Below are positions 26,426 to 31,381 of a DNA stretch of 64,000 bases, piece by piece. Location of the stretch: the NCBI RefSeq assembly GCF_021043605.1, contig NZ_JAJNFB010000004.1, forward strand, positions 23,024 through 87,023. The letters run 5' to 3'. The stretch is from Borreliella americana. Lineage in GTDB: Bacteria; Spirochaetota; Spirochaetia; Borreliales; Borreliaceae. The notes beneath the pieces were generated by a model. It did not search any database and was not told where the DNA came from. It was given only the letters and a program-made list of their open reading frames with translations. Positions within the stretch are counted from its first letter, which is position 1, and each line of letters opens with the position of its first letter. The translations under genes and the position numbers were made by a program.

Positions 26426-27919
26426 TTATTTAATTATTTTTATTTGCTTAAATGCAGGCTTTAGGTTTTTATACATAATTCCTAGTTCGTGGATATTTTT
26501 GACTTCTATTAAGTTTCTAAAAAATTCTTCTTTATTTTTTAGAGTAGGGTTAATAAAATATTTTTCAAATTTATATTTTGAAATTATTTCATGATTTTTT
26601 AAAGCTTCATTCAAATTGTTAGTTGGATCTATTTCAATATAGTATGTATTTTCTTTTTTAAATGCAAATTGATTTCCCCTTTCTTTAAATTTATAGTTAT
26701 TAAGATATATATCGGGATAAATTTGAAAATCGGCTGTTTTGATCATAGTTGTTTTTGGGATGCTTTTAGTATTTTCTTCTAGATTTTGGCTTTCATTTTT
26801 TTCTATGGGCTTTAAATATTCTTTTTCTAATTTTTTATTTTCTCCTAAGTCGTCATTTTTATTTGTAATACTTGGAATGAAAGTTTCTTCGTTTAAGGGT
26901 TTTTGATAAATTTCTTTTTTTTTAAAATTTTTTAATTCTTTTTGAAGTTTTAAAATAGTCTCTTCATTCTCCTTTATTTTGTCTTCTAATTCTTTGAATT
27001 TGTGTTTATCGGTTCTTATTTTTCTTTGATTTTCTTTGTTTATTGCTTCATTTGCGCTGATTTTTCTTTTTAGATCATTGATTATTCTTCCTATTGAAGA
27101 TAAGTTTTCCTCAATTTCTTCTAAGTTTTTATCTGAGTTATCTTTTTTTTTTAAATTTCTTAATTCTCTTTGCAAGTCTAAAATAGTGTTTTCATTTTCG
27201 TTGATTCTGTCTTCAAGGTCATCGATGTTTTTTTCGTTAATAGCATAATATTTTTCGTTTTCATGAAGATTTTCTTTTAGATTTTTTATTATTCCTTCAT
27301 TAGAAGGATAATTGTCCTCATTTGCTTCTTCAGTTCCATCATTATATTCATAATTGTCTTCAAAATCATCATCATCATCCTCTTCTTCAATGCTTTCAAT
27401 ATCTATTTTTTCGTAATTTTCATCTTCTTTGGGCTTGTTTTTTTTATTAAGGAGCTTTTTTATTTCTACTATTTCATTTTTTAATTTATTGGTTAAAATT
27501 TCATATTTTTTTGCTTTTTTTTCGATTGATTCTATTTTTTTATTTTCATTTTCCAATGTTTTTTGATTTTTGGTTTTTAAAAGCTTTTCTATATTTTTAA
27601 TTTTATTTTCATAATTTTCAATTACAGATTTTAGATCATTTTCGTCCATTCTTTTTTTAGGCAGGTTTTTGTCTCTTATATTTTCTGGCAATTTTAGATC
27701 TTTGCCCTTTTTAAGGTCTTCATAAGAAACTGTGTTTTTGTTTAAATGTTTTAAGGTATTTATTTGATCGCTTTTATTCCCAGAATTTTTAAATTCTTCA
27801 CTTAAGTCTTCTAGAGGAATTTCAATGCTAGAGTAACTTATTGTATTATTAGCCCCAAATAATGATATACATAAAAGTATTATAAAATACTTAAAGCTTC
27901 GATTTTTTGTTTTATTCAT
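26426..27919 (-). CDS. Exported acidic coiled-coil protein
   Basis: A 497-residue protein with a signal-like N-terminus (about 1-29) and long lysine- and glutamate-rich heptads from 90 to 360. A very acidic patch with five Asp in a row lies at about 185-200. Two similar cassettes, NENENTILDLQRELRNLKKK and KENEETILKLQKELKNFKKK, show an internal duplication. The last 90 residues form a small separate domain (YYIEIDPTNNLNEAL). I do not recognise the family. It may span the periplasm as a structural rod; this is inference. Confidence 0.65.
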   Translation of the reverse strand: MNKTKNRSFKYFIILLCISLFGANNTISYSSIEIPLEDLSEEFKNSGNKSDQINTLKHLNKNTVSYEDLKKGKDLKLPENIRDKNLPKKRMDENDLKSVIENYENKIKNIEKLLKTKNQKTLENENKKIESIEKKAKKYEILTNKLKNEIVEIKKLLNKKNKPKEDENYEKIDIESIEEEDDDDDFEDNYEYNDGTEEANEDNYPSNEGIIKNLKENLHENEKYYAINEKNIDDLEDRINENENTILDLQRELRNLKKKDNSDKNLEEIEENLSSIGRIINDLKRKISANEAINKENQRKIRTDKHKFKELEDKIKENEETILKLQKELKNFKKKEIYQKPLNEETFIPSITNKNDDLGENKKLEKEYLKPIEKNESQNLEENTKSIPKTTMIKTADFQIYPDIYLNNYKFKERGNQFAFKKENTYYIEIDPTNNLNEALKNHEIISKYKFEKYFINPTLKNKEEFFRNLIEVKNIHELGIMYKNLKPAFKQIKIIK

Positions 27920-28187: not shown

Positions 28188-30065
28188 GTGGGGTTTGTGA
28201 GTTTGACAAATGTGGATGCGCATGAATTTTGGGCTTTGCCAGTTTGCTGCAATGTTAAAGATTCTTTTATTGAAGATTTTAGTTTTGTAGATGAACATGT
28301 AAATTCAATTTTTAGCATCAGCTATAAAGATAATATAACTTTAAAGTTTAGAGATTTTGTTGATTCTAATGAATTTAATTTAAAGCTTTTTGATAATAAA
28401 ATAAGCTTTAAAGGTCAAGTTCCTTTGGTTTTGTATTCAGATAATTTGGATTATTTGCTAAAAGCAGAAAAAAGTGTTCTTTTTAATCTAAGAGTTGGCG
28501 ATGTGAGTAATAGTTATTCTTCTGGATTTACAAAGAAAGAATCTGAAACTTGCAATGTTTTGAATGCTTGTTATGAATTTAGTGATTACAATAGTTTTTC
28601 AAACGACTTTATTTTAGTTAAAACATTTTTTGATTCTGAAAATTTAATTATTGATGCCAATGTAGACAATATTTCTTTTTTAAAATTTTTTATTAGTGAA
28701 AATTTTGGTATAAGTAAAGATAAAATAAAAATCAATTCTCTTGATAATTACTGGTCTAGCTCTATTTTTCCTATTTCTTTTAATGCAATTTTACAAGGCA
28801 TTGCAATTTCAAAAAAGATTAATAAAAAGGTTAATGTTGTTTACTACAAAAGACATTTTGGAATTTTAGATAATTTAAGTTTAACTTTTTCAGTTTCTAA
28901 TTGTTTATTGGCAGATAATAAGCTTTCAAAGATTATTTTAGAAGTTATAATAAATAGACCTTTAAATTTTTTATATAAGTTTTATTTTAAATTTATTAAT
29001 AATATTTTTAAAAATTTGTTTTTTGATGGGTTTTTAGAAATTTTTTTTGTTGAGAATAAAAGTGATTTTGTCTTTTTTTATGACAATCTTTTGGCATTTG
29101 AGACTTCTGTTTATAATTTTATTTATTCCAATTTTTATAATATTGCTTTATCGATGTCTTGTGAGCCAATAGGTTATTTACTTACGCAGATTAAAGGCGA
29201 TTATACTAGTTTTTTGAAAATTTTTAAAAAACTAGATTTAAAAAATTCTTTAATAAAGAAATCTTCTGTTTTAAGTGTTAATAAGGATTATGATATTTTT
29301 GATACTAGTCGAAGGGGAGTCGGTTTTGCTTATGCAAGTTCAAACACCTATTTTTTAAGTGAAGAGCAATATGTTGTTGCTTTCTTGTATAAGGATGAAT
29401 TAAATGTATTTTTGCCCTACAGTATTATTGACAACAATTTAAGCAACTATTTGAAAAATAGCTTAGCCAAAACACTGGACTTGACCTATAGCAGTGTAAA
29501 TTTTTTGATAGACGAGAGCGTATTAGATTTTGATAATTTTTATAATCTTCTTTTTAAAGATCCTTATTTAATTGAAAAAGCAATTTTAAGCATTAAGGAC
29601 AATTTTTCTTCTTTGATAGATGCAGATTTTATAAATGAATATCCTATAGTTTTTAAGGAAAAAATATCTATTGGTGGTGTTAATGATTGTGTGCTTGGGT
29701 GTTCTGTTGAACTTAAATTTGAATTTTATTCTCTTAGTACTGTTTTTAGCAATGTAAGCTTTTTTGTAGAGCAAGGCAAATTTACCAAGCTTAAGTTAAA
29801 TAACAAGAGAATTCGTACAATATTTGGATTGGCAGTTGATTATGTATTTTGCCGTGCTAATGTAAGTTGTGATATTAAAGATTGTTTAAGTCTAGAGTTT
29901 ATTGAAGATGGCGAGTTTATTTTTTCTTTTAGAAGTGTTTTTGTTGTTTCTGTTTCTGCAATTCGAACTGCTTTGATTCAGGTATTTAATTTCAATGTAA
30001 GCAGCACCCCTCTTGATTTTGAAGAAATTTTAAATAGTTGGAGTATAAAAATTGACGCTAATTAA
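28188..30065 (+). CDS. Degenerate molybdopterin (large) subunit of xanthine dehydrogenase family
   Basis: A 625-residue protein, usually called hypothetical. I match it by eye to the large subunit of molybdenum hydroxylases. The start has the hammerhead-like layout. ISFLKFFISENFGISKDKI mirrors the segment before the GGGFGGK loop, but the glycine loop itself is gone. SRRGVGFAY sits in the position of GRGIA. The end, AIRTALIQVFNFNVSSTPLD, matches the A(I/V)..A(I/V).......P.T.E.(V/I) tail. The GEPP motif with the catalytic Glu is replaced by SFRS. It is shorter than the usual 700-770. The start is uncertain (GTG at 28188 or 28197, TTG at 28203). It overlaps the next gene by 14 bases. Confidence 0.6.
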   Translation: MGFVSLTNVDAHEFWALPVCCNVKDSFIEDFSFVDEHVNSIFSISYKDNITLKFRDFVDSNEFNLKLFDNKISFKGQVPLVLYSDNLDYLLKAEKSVLFNLRVGDVSNSYSSGFTKKESETCNVLNACYEFSDYNSFSNDFILVKTFFDSENLIIDANVDNISFLKFFISENFGISKDKIKINSLDNYWSSSIFPISFNAILQGIAISKKINKKVNVVYYKRHFGILDNLSLTFSVSNCLLADNKLSKIILEVIINRPLNFLYKFYFKFINNIFKNLFFDGFLEIFFVENKSDFVFFYDNLLAFETSVYNFIYSNFYNIALSMSCEPIGYLLTQIKGDYTSFLKIFKKLDLKNSLIKKSSVLSVNKDYDIFDTSRRGVGFAYASSNTYFLSEEQYVVAFLYKDELNVFLPYSIIDNNLSNYLKNSLAKTLDLTYSSVNFLIDESVLDFDNFYNLLFKDPYLIEKAILSIKDNFSSLIDADFINEYPIVFKEKISIGGVNDCVLGCSVELKFEFYSLSTVFSNVSFFVEQGKFTKLKLNNKRIRTIFGLAVDYVFCRANVSCDIKDCLSLEFIEDGEFIFSFRSVFVVSVSAIRTALIQVFNFNVSSTPLDFEEILNSWSIKIDAN

Positions 30066-30519
30066 TTTTAATTTAAATGGAGAGAGTATTTCAAAAAAGA
30101 TTAGTCTTTCTTTGGGGACCAGGAATCTTTTGGATTCTGTTTTTTTTGCTAATAGCAATAGTTTGGAGTATATTGTTAACAACAGATTTTTTTTAATTTT
30201 ATTGGATTTCAAACTTGTTTATTCTGATTTAATTCCTGCTTTTATTTTAAATGGTCGGAGTGTAGTTACCTTTGAAGGACTTAAGAAAAAAAGGTTTTAT
30301 AAGCACGTGCAAAAGATTTTATTAGAAGACGATTTTAATTTTTGTAGCAATTGTTTTGAATCCAATGTTTTGTTGTTTTATTACTTTTTGGAAAACGAGA
30401 TTGTAAGCAAATCAGATATTTTAGGCTATAGAAAGTCATTAAAATGCAATTGTATGGATGTTGATACTTTTTTATCTCTCTATTTGAAAGCTGAAGAATT
30501 GTATAGAAAAAATGGCTAA
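30052..30519 (+). CDS. Iron-sulphur (small) subunit of xanthine dehydrogenase family, one cluster site lost
   Basis: A 155-residue protein with the layout of CoxS/XdhC-type small subunits. The N-terminal INFNLNGESISKKIS is the beta-grasp start, and IPAFILNGRSVVTFEGL matches the S-C-L-x-P ... V-x-T-I-E-G-L block. The plant-type [2Fe-2S] cysteines are all absent. The second, helical cluster site is kept: Cys98-x2-Cys101 and Cys132-x-Cys134. The TTG start has GGAG eight bases upstream, inside the end of the large-subunit gene. It overlaps the third gene by 8 bases. Confidence 0.65.
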   Translation: MTLINFNLNGESISKKISLSLGTRNLLDSVFFANSNSLEYIVNNRFFLILLDFKLVYSDLIPAFILNGRSVVTFEGLKKKRFYKHVQKILLEDDFNFCSNCFESNVLLFYYFLENEIVSKSDILGYRKSLKCNCMDVDTFLSLYLKAEELYRKNG

Positions 30520-31381
30520 TGTTAAGGTTTATTACCCCGAAAGTTTTAATATACTATCTAATTTATTTAACAAAAATTTAAATAATTATATCATTTATAA
30601 TGAGCTAGATTTTAAAAAAAATCCCAATTTGTTTAATAGAGAAACACCTATTGATAATTTTTTTGTTGTTGGTAATTTTGAAAAATTCAATAAGGTATCT
30701 TTAAGGGGTAATTTTCTTGAGATGGGACCTTGTGTTACTTACAACGAGATACTTCAGATTGGTAAGAAAAATATTCCAAGTTTGTTTTATGAATTTATTT
30801 CAAAATTTAATGATAAAATATATTTAAATAGTATTAACCTTGCAAATGGGTTTTATTATAAAAACACTGTTTTTGATATTTATCCCTTGTTGCTAAGTCT
30901 TGATGCTCAAATTGAGTTTAAAAATGTTTTAACCAAAAAAACATATGTTTTTAGTGCTTATAATTTAAATAGAACTGAGTATATTGCAAATCGAAACACT
31001 GTTCTTGTTACTAAATTTAAATTTCCAATGATGAATTTATGGAACAGAAGCTTTTATCATAAAATATTTTTCAATACCTTGTCTTTTGACATTTTAGAAG
31101 AAGCAGACATTATTTTTATATGTATTCTTTTAAACATAAAAAGAGTCATTATAAATGATTTTTTGTTAAAGATATTTTATGATGACAAAGTGATAGTCAT
31201 AAAGGATTTCCAGATTTTGCTTTTAAACAAATCTTTGCCGCTTTCATTTTCTGAGATAGAAAATTCTCTTAAAATGTTAGATAGAAATATAAGAGATTCT
31301 AAAAATTTCAATATAGGAGAGAGAAATTTAAAGCTAATAAAGAATTTTTATTTAGACATATTAATGGGTTGTAATTTTTAA
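30512..31381 (+). CDS. Degenerate FAD-binding (medium) subunit of xanthine dehydrogenase family
   Basis: A 289-residue protein with the CoxM/XdhB pattern. LEMGPCVTYNEI (69-80) stands for L.IGA.VTH.EI, SINLANG (107-113) for TIGGN(I/L), DIYPLLLSLDAQIEF (122-136) for D..P.LLAL.A.V, and VLVTKFKFP for the later strand. The glycine pairs of both FAD loops are replaced, so flavin binding is doubtful. The C-terminal CO-dehydrogenase-like domain is recognisable only by length. The three genes are intact and coupled, which argues for selection rather than decay. Confidence 0.6.
   Translation: MANVKVYYPESFNILSNLFNKNLNNYIIYNELDFKKNPNLFNRETPIDNFFVVGNFEKFNKVSLRGNFLEMGPCVTYNEILQIGKKNIPSLFYEFISKFNDKIYLNSINLANGFYYKNTVFDIYPLLLSLDAQIEFKNVLTKKTYVFSAYNLNRTEYIANRNTVLVTKFKFPMMNLWNRSFYHKIFFNTLSFDILEEADIIFICILLNIKRVIINDFLLKIFYDDKVIVIKDFQILLLNKSLPLSFSEIENSLKMLDRNIRDSKNFNIGERNLKLIKNFYLDILMGCNF

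What the first reader, a model, noticed from the sequence alone, without database searches (positions are those of the whole stretch)
28188..31381. Three coupled genes look like a molybdenum hydroxylase stripped of its cofactors
The three 'hypothetical' genes match, in order, the large, iron-sulphur and flavin subunits of the xanthine dehydrogenase family. The match is read from block patterns (C-terminal A-I-R-T-A-L tail, CxxC/CxC, D..PLLLSLDA). The glycine loops for molybdopterin and FAD and the catalytic Glu site are gone, yet all three frames are intact and overlap. Borrelia is thought to use little iron, and I see no molybdenum cofactor genes here. A kept protein complex with lost chemistry suggests a new role, such as purine sensing or binding.
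Basis: partly seen in the sequence, partly recalled or inferred. Interest (0 to 1): 0.85.

Follow-up and report, generated by a model that had tools for sequence, protein, structure and literature searches.

The report
Hollowed-out xanthine dehydrogenase of Lyme spirochaetes
Three overlapping genes of Lyme-disease bacteria are distant relatives of the three subunits of xanthine dehydrogenase that have lost the motifs for holding molybdenum and flavin but keep one invariant four-cysteine motif, so the likely complex, reported to help the cell survive peroxide, is predicted to be a redox-responsive scaffold and not the purine-oxidising enzyme that its published name implies.

The parts
28188..30065 (+). 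Large subunit L (625 aa, orthologue of BB_0554): molybdenum-hydroxylase L fold without the Moco-loop motifs; the start codon is uncertain (GTG at residue 1, further GTG/TTG at residues 4, 6, 9)
28737..28766 (+). Part of L (about residues 184-193) that aligns near the Moco loop GG.FGGK of canonical L; none of the motif is left (alignment uncertain here: most loop columns are gaps in Borreliaceae)
   Evidence: loop Gly 20/20 canonical, 0/57 Spirochaetia family, 0/24 Borreliaceae
29910..29915 (+). Gly575-Glu576 of L, aligned near the catalytic Glu of xanthine oxidoreductase but in a loop of different length; undecided
   Evidence: Glu 23/24 in Borreliaceae
30052..30519 (+). Small subunit S (155 aa, orthologue of BB_0555): [2Fe-2S] subunit that lost the N-terminal ferredoxin cluster cysteines
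30343..30453 (+). Cys98-x2-Cys101 ... Cys132-x-Cys134 of S: the Fe/S-I motif (name recalled), the only cysteines in the protein, invariant in 10 of 10 Borreliaceae
30512..31381 (+). Medium subunit M (289 aa, orthologue of BB_0556): FAD_binding_5-type subunit without its FAD glycine motifs
30596..30607 (+). M residues 29-32 (YNEL) in place of FAD glycine motif I (AGGT/AGGxS)
   Evidence: motif Gly 52/55 in the Spirochaetia family, 0/17 in Borreliaceae
30836..30847 (+). M residues 109-112 (NLAN) in place of FAD glycine motif II (TIGG); lies in the most conserved 20-residue block of M (0.93)
   Evidence: Gly-Gly 53/55 in the family, 0/17 in Borreliaceae

Best explanation
The operon encodes divergent large, iron-sulphur and flavin subunits of the molybdenum-hydroxylase (xanthine dehydrogenase) family in which the molybdenum-cofactor, FAD and N-terminal [2Fe-2S] motifs are gone and the four-cysteine Fe/S-I motif remains; it likely forms a three-subunit complex that is predicted to act as a redox-responsive metal-site scaffold, not as a hydroxylase, and would in that way help the cell survive peroxide. 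Shown: homology of all three subunits, coupled gene order, loss and retention of motifs, purifying selection, L in all 36 Borreliaceae genomes searched and L-S-M in the 30 loci read, and an L-S-M family across Spirochaetia whose L lacks the Moco-loop Gly and the AFRGFG Arg. Reported by others: transposon mutants drop out in peroxide screens and are listed in a larval-tick screen. Inferred: that L, S and M assemble, that the four cysteines hold a [2Fe-2S] cluster (zinc is the alternative), and that oxidation of this site is what matters. The likely history is stepwise: an ancestral L-S-M complex of spirochaetes lost molybdenum but kept the FAD and Fe-S motifs (as in most of the relatives), the N-terminal Fe-S cluster was then lost in some lines (a T. 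pallidum-sized genome, Borreliaceae) and, in Borreliaceae, the FAD motifs as well.
Against: No metal, flavin or complex has been measured. Borreliaceae keep only 3 of 23 residues that mark the Spirochaetia L family and their branch is very long (3.41), so L could have drifted from another start. In the Spirochaetia family the end of the Moco loop is still partly there (Gly 44/57, Lys 39/57). The sets are selected: 20 family loci came from 30 genomes that I picked for few and mostly weak MoCoBD_1 hits, 5 of which have MoaC; the 20 canonical rows are the best-scoring loci. Missing MoaC/MoeA is not proof of no molybdenum use: family f9 has canonical L proteins yet almost no MoaC and no MoeA match. 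The window's own genome shows no NifU_N match. A C-terminal-only L of 349 aa stands for 21 member sequences (P0026), so some strains may have a broken L. Published work names the locus a xanthine dehydrogenase.
Confidence: 0.5

Rival explanations
1. It is a working xanthine dehydrogenase that makes uric acid as an antioxidant, as the published name xdhACB implies, with cofactors bound in an unusual way or taken up from the host.
For: Subunit homology; a review says that bb_0554-0556 (xdhACB) encodes a xanthine dehydrogenase with a role in ROS resistance (PMC10566445, passage); the primary paper (Phelan 2023, PMC9993122) is not held, and that it used uric acid and allopurinol is recalled only. 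A Gly-Glu pair aligns near the catalytic Glu. Spirochaetia family f9 shows canonical L proteins almost without MoaC and without MoeA matches.
Against: Moco-loop Gly, AFRGFG Arg and GQ Gln absent in 24 of 24 Borreliaceae L; FAD motifs absent in 17 of 17 M; one of two Fe-S motifs absent; no MoaC in 36 of 36 genomes. The electron path Mo to Fe-S to FAD has no end points left.
Confidence: 0.07
2. The complex still binds a purine (or urate) and works as a purine sensor or carrier.
For: Purine salvage matters to B. burgdorferi (title and abstract listing of PMC2764106); the L fold is predicted to be kept and the locus is selectively maintained.
Against: The Mo cofactor and its neighbours line the substrate pocket in a relative (PMC8305194 passages) and their motifs are gone; nothing in gene order ties it to purine genes: nearby genes here are ligA, ptsH and ptsI, and the relatives' neighbours are often sugar genes.
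Confidence: 0.13
3. The Spirochaetia L-S-M complex is an enzyme with another active site, for instance a flavin/Fe-S oxidoreductase on a nucleotide sugar; Borreliaceae keep a remodelled version with an unknown ligand.
For: A DegT aminotransferase match lies in 42 and a CapD 4,6-dehydratase match in 43 of 57 loci (49 of 57 have at least one), usually upstream of L; family-specific conserved residues such as Trp 54/57 and Lys 57/57 differ from canonical L; the block that replaced FAD motif II is the best conserved of Borrelia M.
Against: Neither a full-length CapD nor a full-length DegT match in 36 Borreliaceae: only weak partial matches in frames of about 360 and 430 aa, yet the operon stays; most family signature residues are changed in Borrelia.
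Confidence: 0.22
4. A decaying relic with no function.
For: Most ancestral motifs lost; a C-terminal-only L exists in 21 member sequences (P0026).
Against: dN/dS 0.09-0.28 in all three genes, 30 of 30 loci intact and coupled, peroxide and tick screens.
Confidence: 0.03

Closest known systems
Xanthine dehydrogenase / molybdenum hydroxylases (XDH, CoxLMS, QorLMS, KdhLMS)
   Same: Three subunits homologous to L, S and M; predicted L fold over its whole length; Fe/S-I CxxC...CxC motif.
   Different: No Moco-loop Gly, no AFRGFG arginine, no FAD glycine motifs, no N-terminal [2Fe-2S] cysteines in the Borreliaceae rows; Borreliaceae lack MoaC.
Spirochaetia L-S-M operons (e.g. Treponema putidum L071; T. 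pallidum-sized genome L051, cf. TPASS_0079 and TPASS_0081 predicted as xanthine dehydrogenase in PMC4403809, passage)
   Same: Same gene order, nearest profile relatives of S and M outside Borreliaceae, Moco-loop Gly and AFRGFG Arg absent.
   Different: They mostly keep FAD and both Fe-S motifs and often the DegT/CapD neighbours.
B. burgdorferi BB_0554-0556 / xdhACB
   Same: The orthologous locus: L 93 % identical to a cluster named B. burgdorferi (P0001); the locus numbers rest on recalled gene order and the papers.
   Different: Published as a putative xanthine dehydrogenase; by its motifs it lacks that chemistry.

Membership tests
Molybdenum hydroxylase / xanthine dehydrogenase (functional enzyme) | L, S and M subunit homology and fold | tested here: met
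Molybdenum hydroxylase / xanthine dehydrogenase (functional enzyme) | Moco-binding motifs of L (GG.FGGK, AFRGFG, GQ) | tested here: not met
   20/20 canonical against 0/24 Borreliaceae for the loop Gly, Arg and Gln
Molybdenum hydroxylase / xanthine dehydrogenase (functional enzyme) | Catalytic Glu | tested here: inconclusive
   Gly-Glu aligned in 23/24 but in a loop of different length
Molybdenum hydroxylase / xanthine dehydrogenase (functional enzyme) | Two FAD glycine motifs in M | tested here: not met
   0/17
Molybdenum hydroxylase / xanthine dehydrogenase (functional enzyme) | Two [2Fe-2S] four-cysteine motifs in S | tested here: not met
   Fe/S-I 10/10, N-terminal cluster 0/10
Molybdenum hydroxylase / xanthine dehydrogenase (functional enzyme) | Moco biosynthesis in the genome | tested here: not met
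   MoaC 0/36 Borreliaceae; no MoeA match in the window's family among the 78 positives; MoaA, MoaE, MogA not searched
Molybdenum hydroxylase / xanthine dehydrogenase (functional enzyme) | Xanthine-dependent activity | not testable with these tools
   needs biochemistry
Spirochaetia Mo-free L-S-M branch (defined here) | L-S-M gene order | tested here: met
   30/30 Borreliaceae loci; 35/37 named Spirochaetota loci, the other two stop at a contig end
Spirochaetia Mo-free L-S-M branch (defined here) | Moco-loop Gly and AFRGFG Arg lost; not inside the canonical clade | tested here: met
   (the 20 canonical rows are one side of a branch, SH-aLRT 100; Borreliaceae on a long branch)
Spirochaetia Mo-free L-S-M branch (defined here) | Family signature residues of L | tested here: inconclusive
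   3 of 23 signature columns kept in at least 22/24 Borreliaceae

The most novel reading that the evidence does not exclude
Spirochaetes own a class-wide, molybdenum-free branch of the molybdenum-hydroxylase family, kept even by tiny Treponema pallidum-type and Borrelia genomes and tied by gene order to nucleotide-sugar synthesis in most lineages; it does new chemistry in treponemes, and in Borrelia the same three-subunit frame has been emptied to a single four-cysteine site and turned into a redox-responsive complex. The published Borrelia 'xanthine dehydrogenase' would then be a pseudoenzyme.
Probability: 0.5. Interest if true: 0.85.

Novelty: new variant of a known kind. Interest (0 to 1): 0.68.

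Why it matters
A locus found in peroxide and tick screens of the Lyme agent carries the name of an enzyme that it cannot plausibly be by its motifs; that changes which experiments make sense. More widely, a large three-subunit redox complex that lost its metal, then its flavin, in steps that can still be read in living spirochaetes would be a rare series from enzyme to pseudoenzyme. It also asks what a bacterium reputed to need little iron does with a perfectly kept Fe-S cysteine site.

Tried and rejected
A Borreliaceae-only model of L was poor (pLDDT 51), though its 50 Foldseek rows shown were all Mo hydroxylases. Promoter scan not informative (33 found, shuffles 24.1, sd 5.5).

Considered and rejected: 'catalytic Glu gone' as a firm claim; 'MoaC absent, hence no Mo enzyme' as a general rule (family f9); a Borrelia-specific origin of the Mo loss; 'Borrelia is the most stripped of all', since L063 and L070 lost all or nearly all Fe-S cysteines.

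Corrections on the way: three of 20 canonical L (L002, L003, L011) were read in a wrong frame; one search repeats the count with the right frames. Rows used: A1 the window and 23 of 34 proteins, A2 the window and 9 of 15, A3 the window and 16 of 21 (fragments and near-copies left out). The tree used 8 of 24 Borreliaceae rows. The family set of 57 L is 20 unnamed + 37 named loci from overlapping collections; near-copies are present, so rows are not independent. S and M counts are 55 of these 57, as two contigs end after L. The three non-spirochaete loci (L108-L110) were left out. The named loci were found with patterns from four sequences (A8), which favours that side of the family.

Literature: primary papers Phelan 2023 (PMC9993122) and George 2024 (PMC11659052) are not held; seen only as reference-list entries. 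PMC5333916 passages and section 8; PMC6516651, PMC10566445, PMC6117026, PMC11784157, PMC6711536, PMC11411949, PMC4403809, PMC5015957, PMC8305194 passages only; PMC2764106 listing only. Searches listed no paper whose title or abstract start tells of a molybdenum-free L-S-M family of spirochaetes; the library lacks most subscription journals.
Full report
What is there. Three frames, L 28188-30065 (625 aa), S 30052-30519 (155 aa) and M 30512-31381 (289 aa), overlap by 14 and 8 nt between a minus-strand 497-aa gene and ptsH-ptsI, with ligA beyond. By gene order (recalled) and by 93 % identity of L to a cluster named B. burgdorferi they are the orthologues of BB_0554, BB_0555 and BB_0556. A whole-database search gave 34, 15 and 21 proteins; all named rows are Borrelia or Borreliella, and some already call M 'xanthine dehydrogenase family protein subunit M'.

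Is the family assignment real? Single-sequence evidence is thin: nothing for L, Fer2_2 E 0.1 and pucE 3.4e-5 for S, FAD_binding_5 E 0.0042 and xanthine_xdhA 2.7e-4 for M, all below curated cut-offs; scanned one by one, 16 of 17 Borreliaceae M match FAD_binding_5 at E<=1, best 2.1e-5, and 5 of 10 S match Fer2_2, best 0.009. I therefore looked for intermediates. A search of 248 Spirochaetia genomes with MoCoBD_1 gave matches in 209. Many gave few, weak hits. I picked 30 such genomes by hand and took 16-17 kb around 20 of them (L051-L070). L, S and M lie in that order in these loci by position and alignment; the Borreliaceae profiles recognise S at E<=0.001 in 17 of 20 and M in 14 of 20 (best 6.5e-16 and 1.6e-19; L070 fails for both). 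Profile-profile comparison of L gave probability 98.3, E 1.5e-14 over 576 columns; eight column shuffles gave 0.37-0.86 and a reversal 0.11. The Spirochaetia profiles hit solved Mo hydroxylases: L at 1.5e-64, S at 5.9e-39, M at 1.4e-29 (the S and M profiles include three Borreliaceae rows each).

Which motifs are left? A scan of public genomes brought 40 named loci, 37 from Spirochaetota (L071-L107; e.g. Treponema putidum, T. porcinum, Brucepastera; L087 is titled only 'bacterium'); S and M follow L in 35, and two stop at a contig end. Counts are given as canonical L of Spirochaetia (20, the best-scoring loci) / this family (57) / Borreliaceae (24): Moco-loop glycine 20 / 0 / 0, its Phe 20 / 2 / 0, AFRGFG arginine 20 / 0 / 0, GQ glutamine 20 / 1 / 0, GQG glycine 20 / 5 / 0. 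The end of the loop survives partly in the family (Gly 44, Lys 39 of 57) and not in Borreliaceae, where most loop columns are gaps. In a solved relative, Phe269 and Arg383 stabilise the Mo cofactor and the AYR/AFR loop lies about 4 A from Mo (PMC8305194 passages; matching Phe269 to the loop Phe is mine). S: N-terminal cluster cysteines 52 of 55 in the family, 0 of 10 in Borreliaceae; Fe/S-I cysteines 52-53 of 55 and 10 of 10. The window's S has exactly four cysteines, 98, 101, 132 and 134, and they are these. M: AGG(T) motif glycine 52 of 55 against 0 of 17, TIGG glycines 53 of 55 against 0 of 17 (motifs named in PMC8305194). The catalytic Glu is undecided: Glu 20 / 29 (12 Asp, 6 Asn) / 23, with a loop of different length in Borrelia.

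So losses come in steps. The family lacks the Moco-loop Gly and the Arg throughout. The genome G108 (one contig of 1,139,633 bases; by recalled size T. pallidum Nichols) keeps FAD_binding_5 (3.6e-37) and Fer2_2 (2.5e-18) but shows no Fer2 match. Borreliaceae have lost the FAD motifs too. L063 and L070 lost Fe/S-I and N-terminal cysteines but keep TIGG, an independent decay. A tree of 85 rows puts the 20 canonical L on one side of a branch with full support and everything else on the other, with Borreliaceae on a branch of 3.41 (the tool warns of long branches, and the family without Borreliaceae is not one side of a branch). Borreliaceae keep only 3 of 23 family signature columns, so they are best called descendants or sisters of that branch, not ordinary members.

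Is it used? L is present once in each of 36 of 36 Borreliaceae genomes; in one (G001) the match holds a TGA, but a 616-aa frame starts 12 bases into it. L-S-M is intact and coupled in 30 of 30 loci read (30 of 36 had loci). Median dN/dS in the Lyme group is 0.17, 0.125 and 0.092 for L, S, M and in the relapsing-fever group 0.28, 0.15 and 0.14. Against this, a C-terminal-only L of 349 aa stands for 21 member sequences. [quoted passage not shown] in the table of hits under 0.33 only bb0556 stands, ratio 0.274, hydrogen peroxide), and bb0554 and bb0555 are in the larval-tick table (PMC5333916, PMC6516651). A review names the cluster xdhACB, encoding a xanthine dehydrogenase.

Cofactor supply. MoaC: 0 of 36 Borreliaceae, 5 of the 30 picked genomes, 87 of 248 Spirochaetia. 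MoeA: 78 of 248, none in the window's family. MoCoBD_1 0 of 36 Borreliaceae. Fer2 absent from the window's own genome. A caution: family f9 has canonical L proteins but, G113 apart, no MoaC, and no MoeA match. Borreliaceae carry a weak NifU_N match (33 of 36; over the cut-off in 21; not in the window's own genome) beside a frame of about 430 aa with a weak aminotransferase match that I read as SufS-like, so Fe-S assembly is possible but not shown.

Gene order as a lead. In the relatives, L often follows a DegT sugar aminotransferase and a CapD-type 4,6-dehydratase: DegT in 42, CapD in 43, both in 36, at least one in 49 of 57 loci, some of them cut by contig ends. Borreliaceae have neither at full length (only weak partial matches). 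So the ancestral role may lie in nucleotide-sugar chemistry and not in purines; Borrelia would use the complex without it.

Mechanism. I commit to a redox-responsive scaffold: L and M hold S, whose Cys4 site (likely [2Fe-2S], possibly zinc) is the one ancestral redox motif left, and its oxidation would matter in peroxide defence. The homology of the family and the motif counts are shown; assembly, metal and sensing are inferred. The published XDH reading is the least compatible with the sequence, short of no function at all.

Noticed in passing
Spirochaetia family f9 (G043, G068, G086, G101, G123, G151 = L019 and others): These genomes mostly have 4-7 strong MoCoBD_1 matches (G191 has 3, G171 two weak ones), and L019 has an intact GGGFGGK loop, yet apart from G113 they show no MoaC match and none shows MoeA: either an unusual Moco route or molybdenum-free use.
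   Followed up: no
L051-L107, around L-S-M: A DegT aminotransferase and a CapD 4,6-dehydratase match lie in most Spirochaetia loci, and DnaE downstream in 10 of 57; a NusG/KOW protein lies upstream in L057.
   Followed up: partly
L063 (G061) and L070 (G171), small subunits: Both lost most Fe/S-I and N-terminal cluster cysteines although the L-S-M order is kept: independent further decay outside Borrelia.
   Followed up: no
Borreliaceae genomes, about 79-82 kb on the chromosome (e.g. G017:C1:81475-82791): A frame of about 430 aa with a weak aminotransferase match (read as SufS/NifS-like) sits beside a weak NifU_N match: a possible minimal sulphur or Fe-S pair in bacteria said to need little iron.
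   Followed up: no
P0026: A 349-aa C-terminal-only version of L stands for 21 member sequences and starts at window residue 277; in those records the upstream part of the frame seems to be broken or missed.
   Followed up: partly
window 26426-27919, minus strand: 497-aa protein rich in Lys, Glu and Asn with coiled-coil-like stretches and no Pfam match at E<=0.001, between ligA and this operon.
   Followed up: no
orthologue of window 30512-31381 in B. burgdorferi: PMC6117026 (passage) lists ncRNA0083, placed at BB_0556 and the BB_0556/BB_0557 gap, in a table of its BadR section.
   Followed up: no
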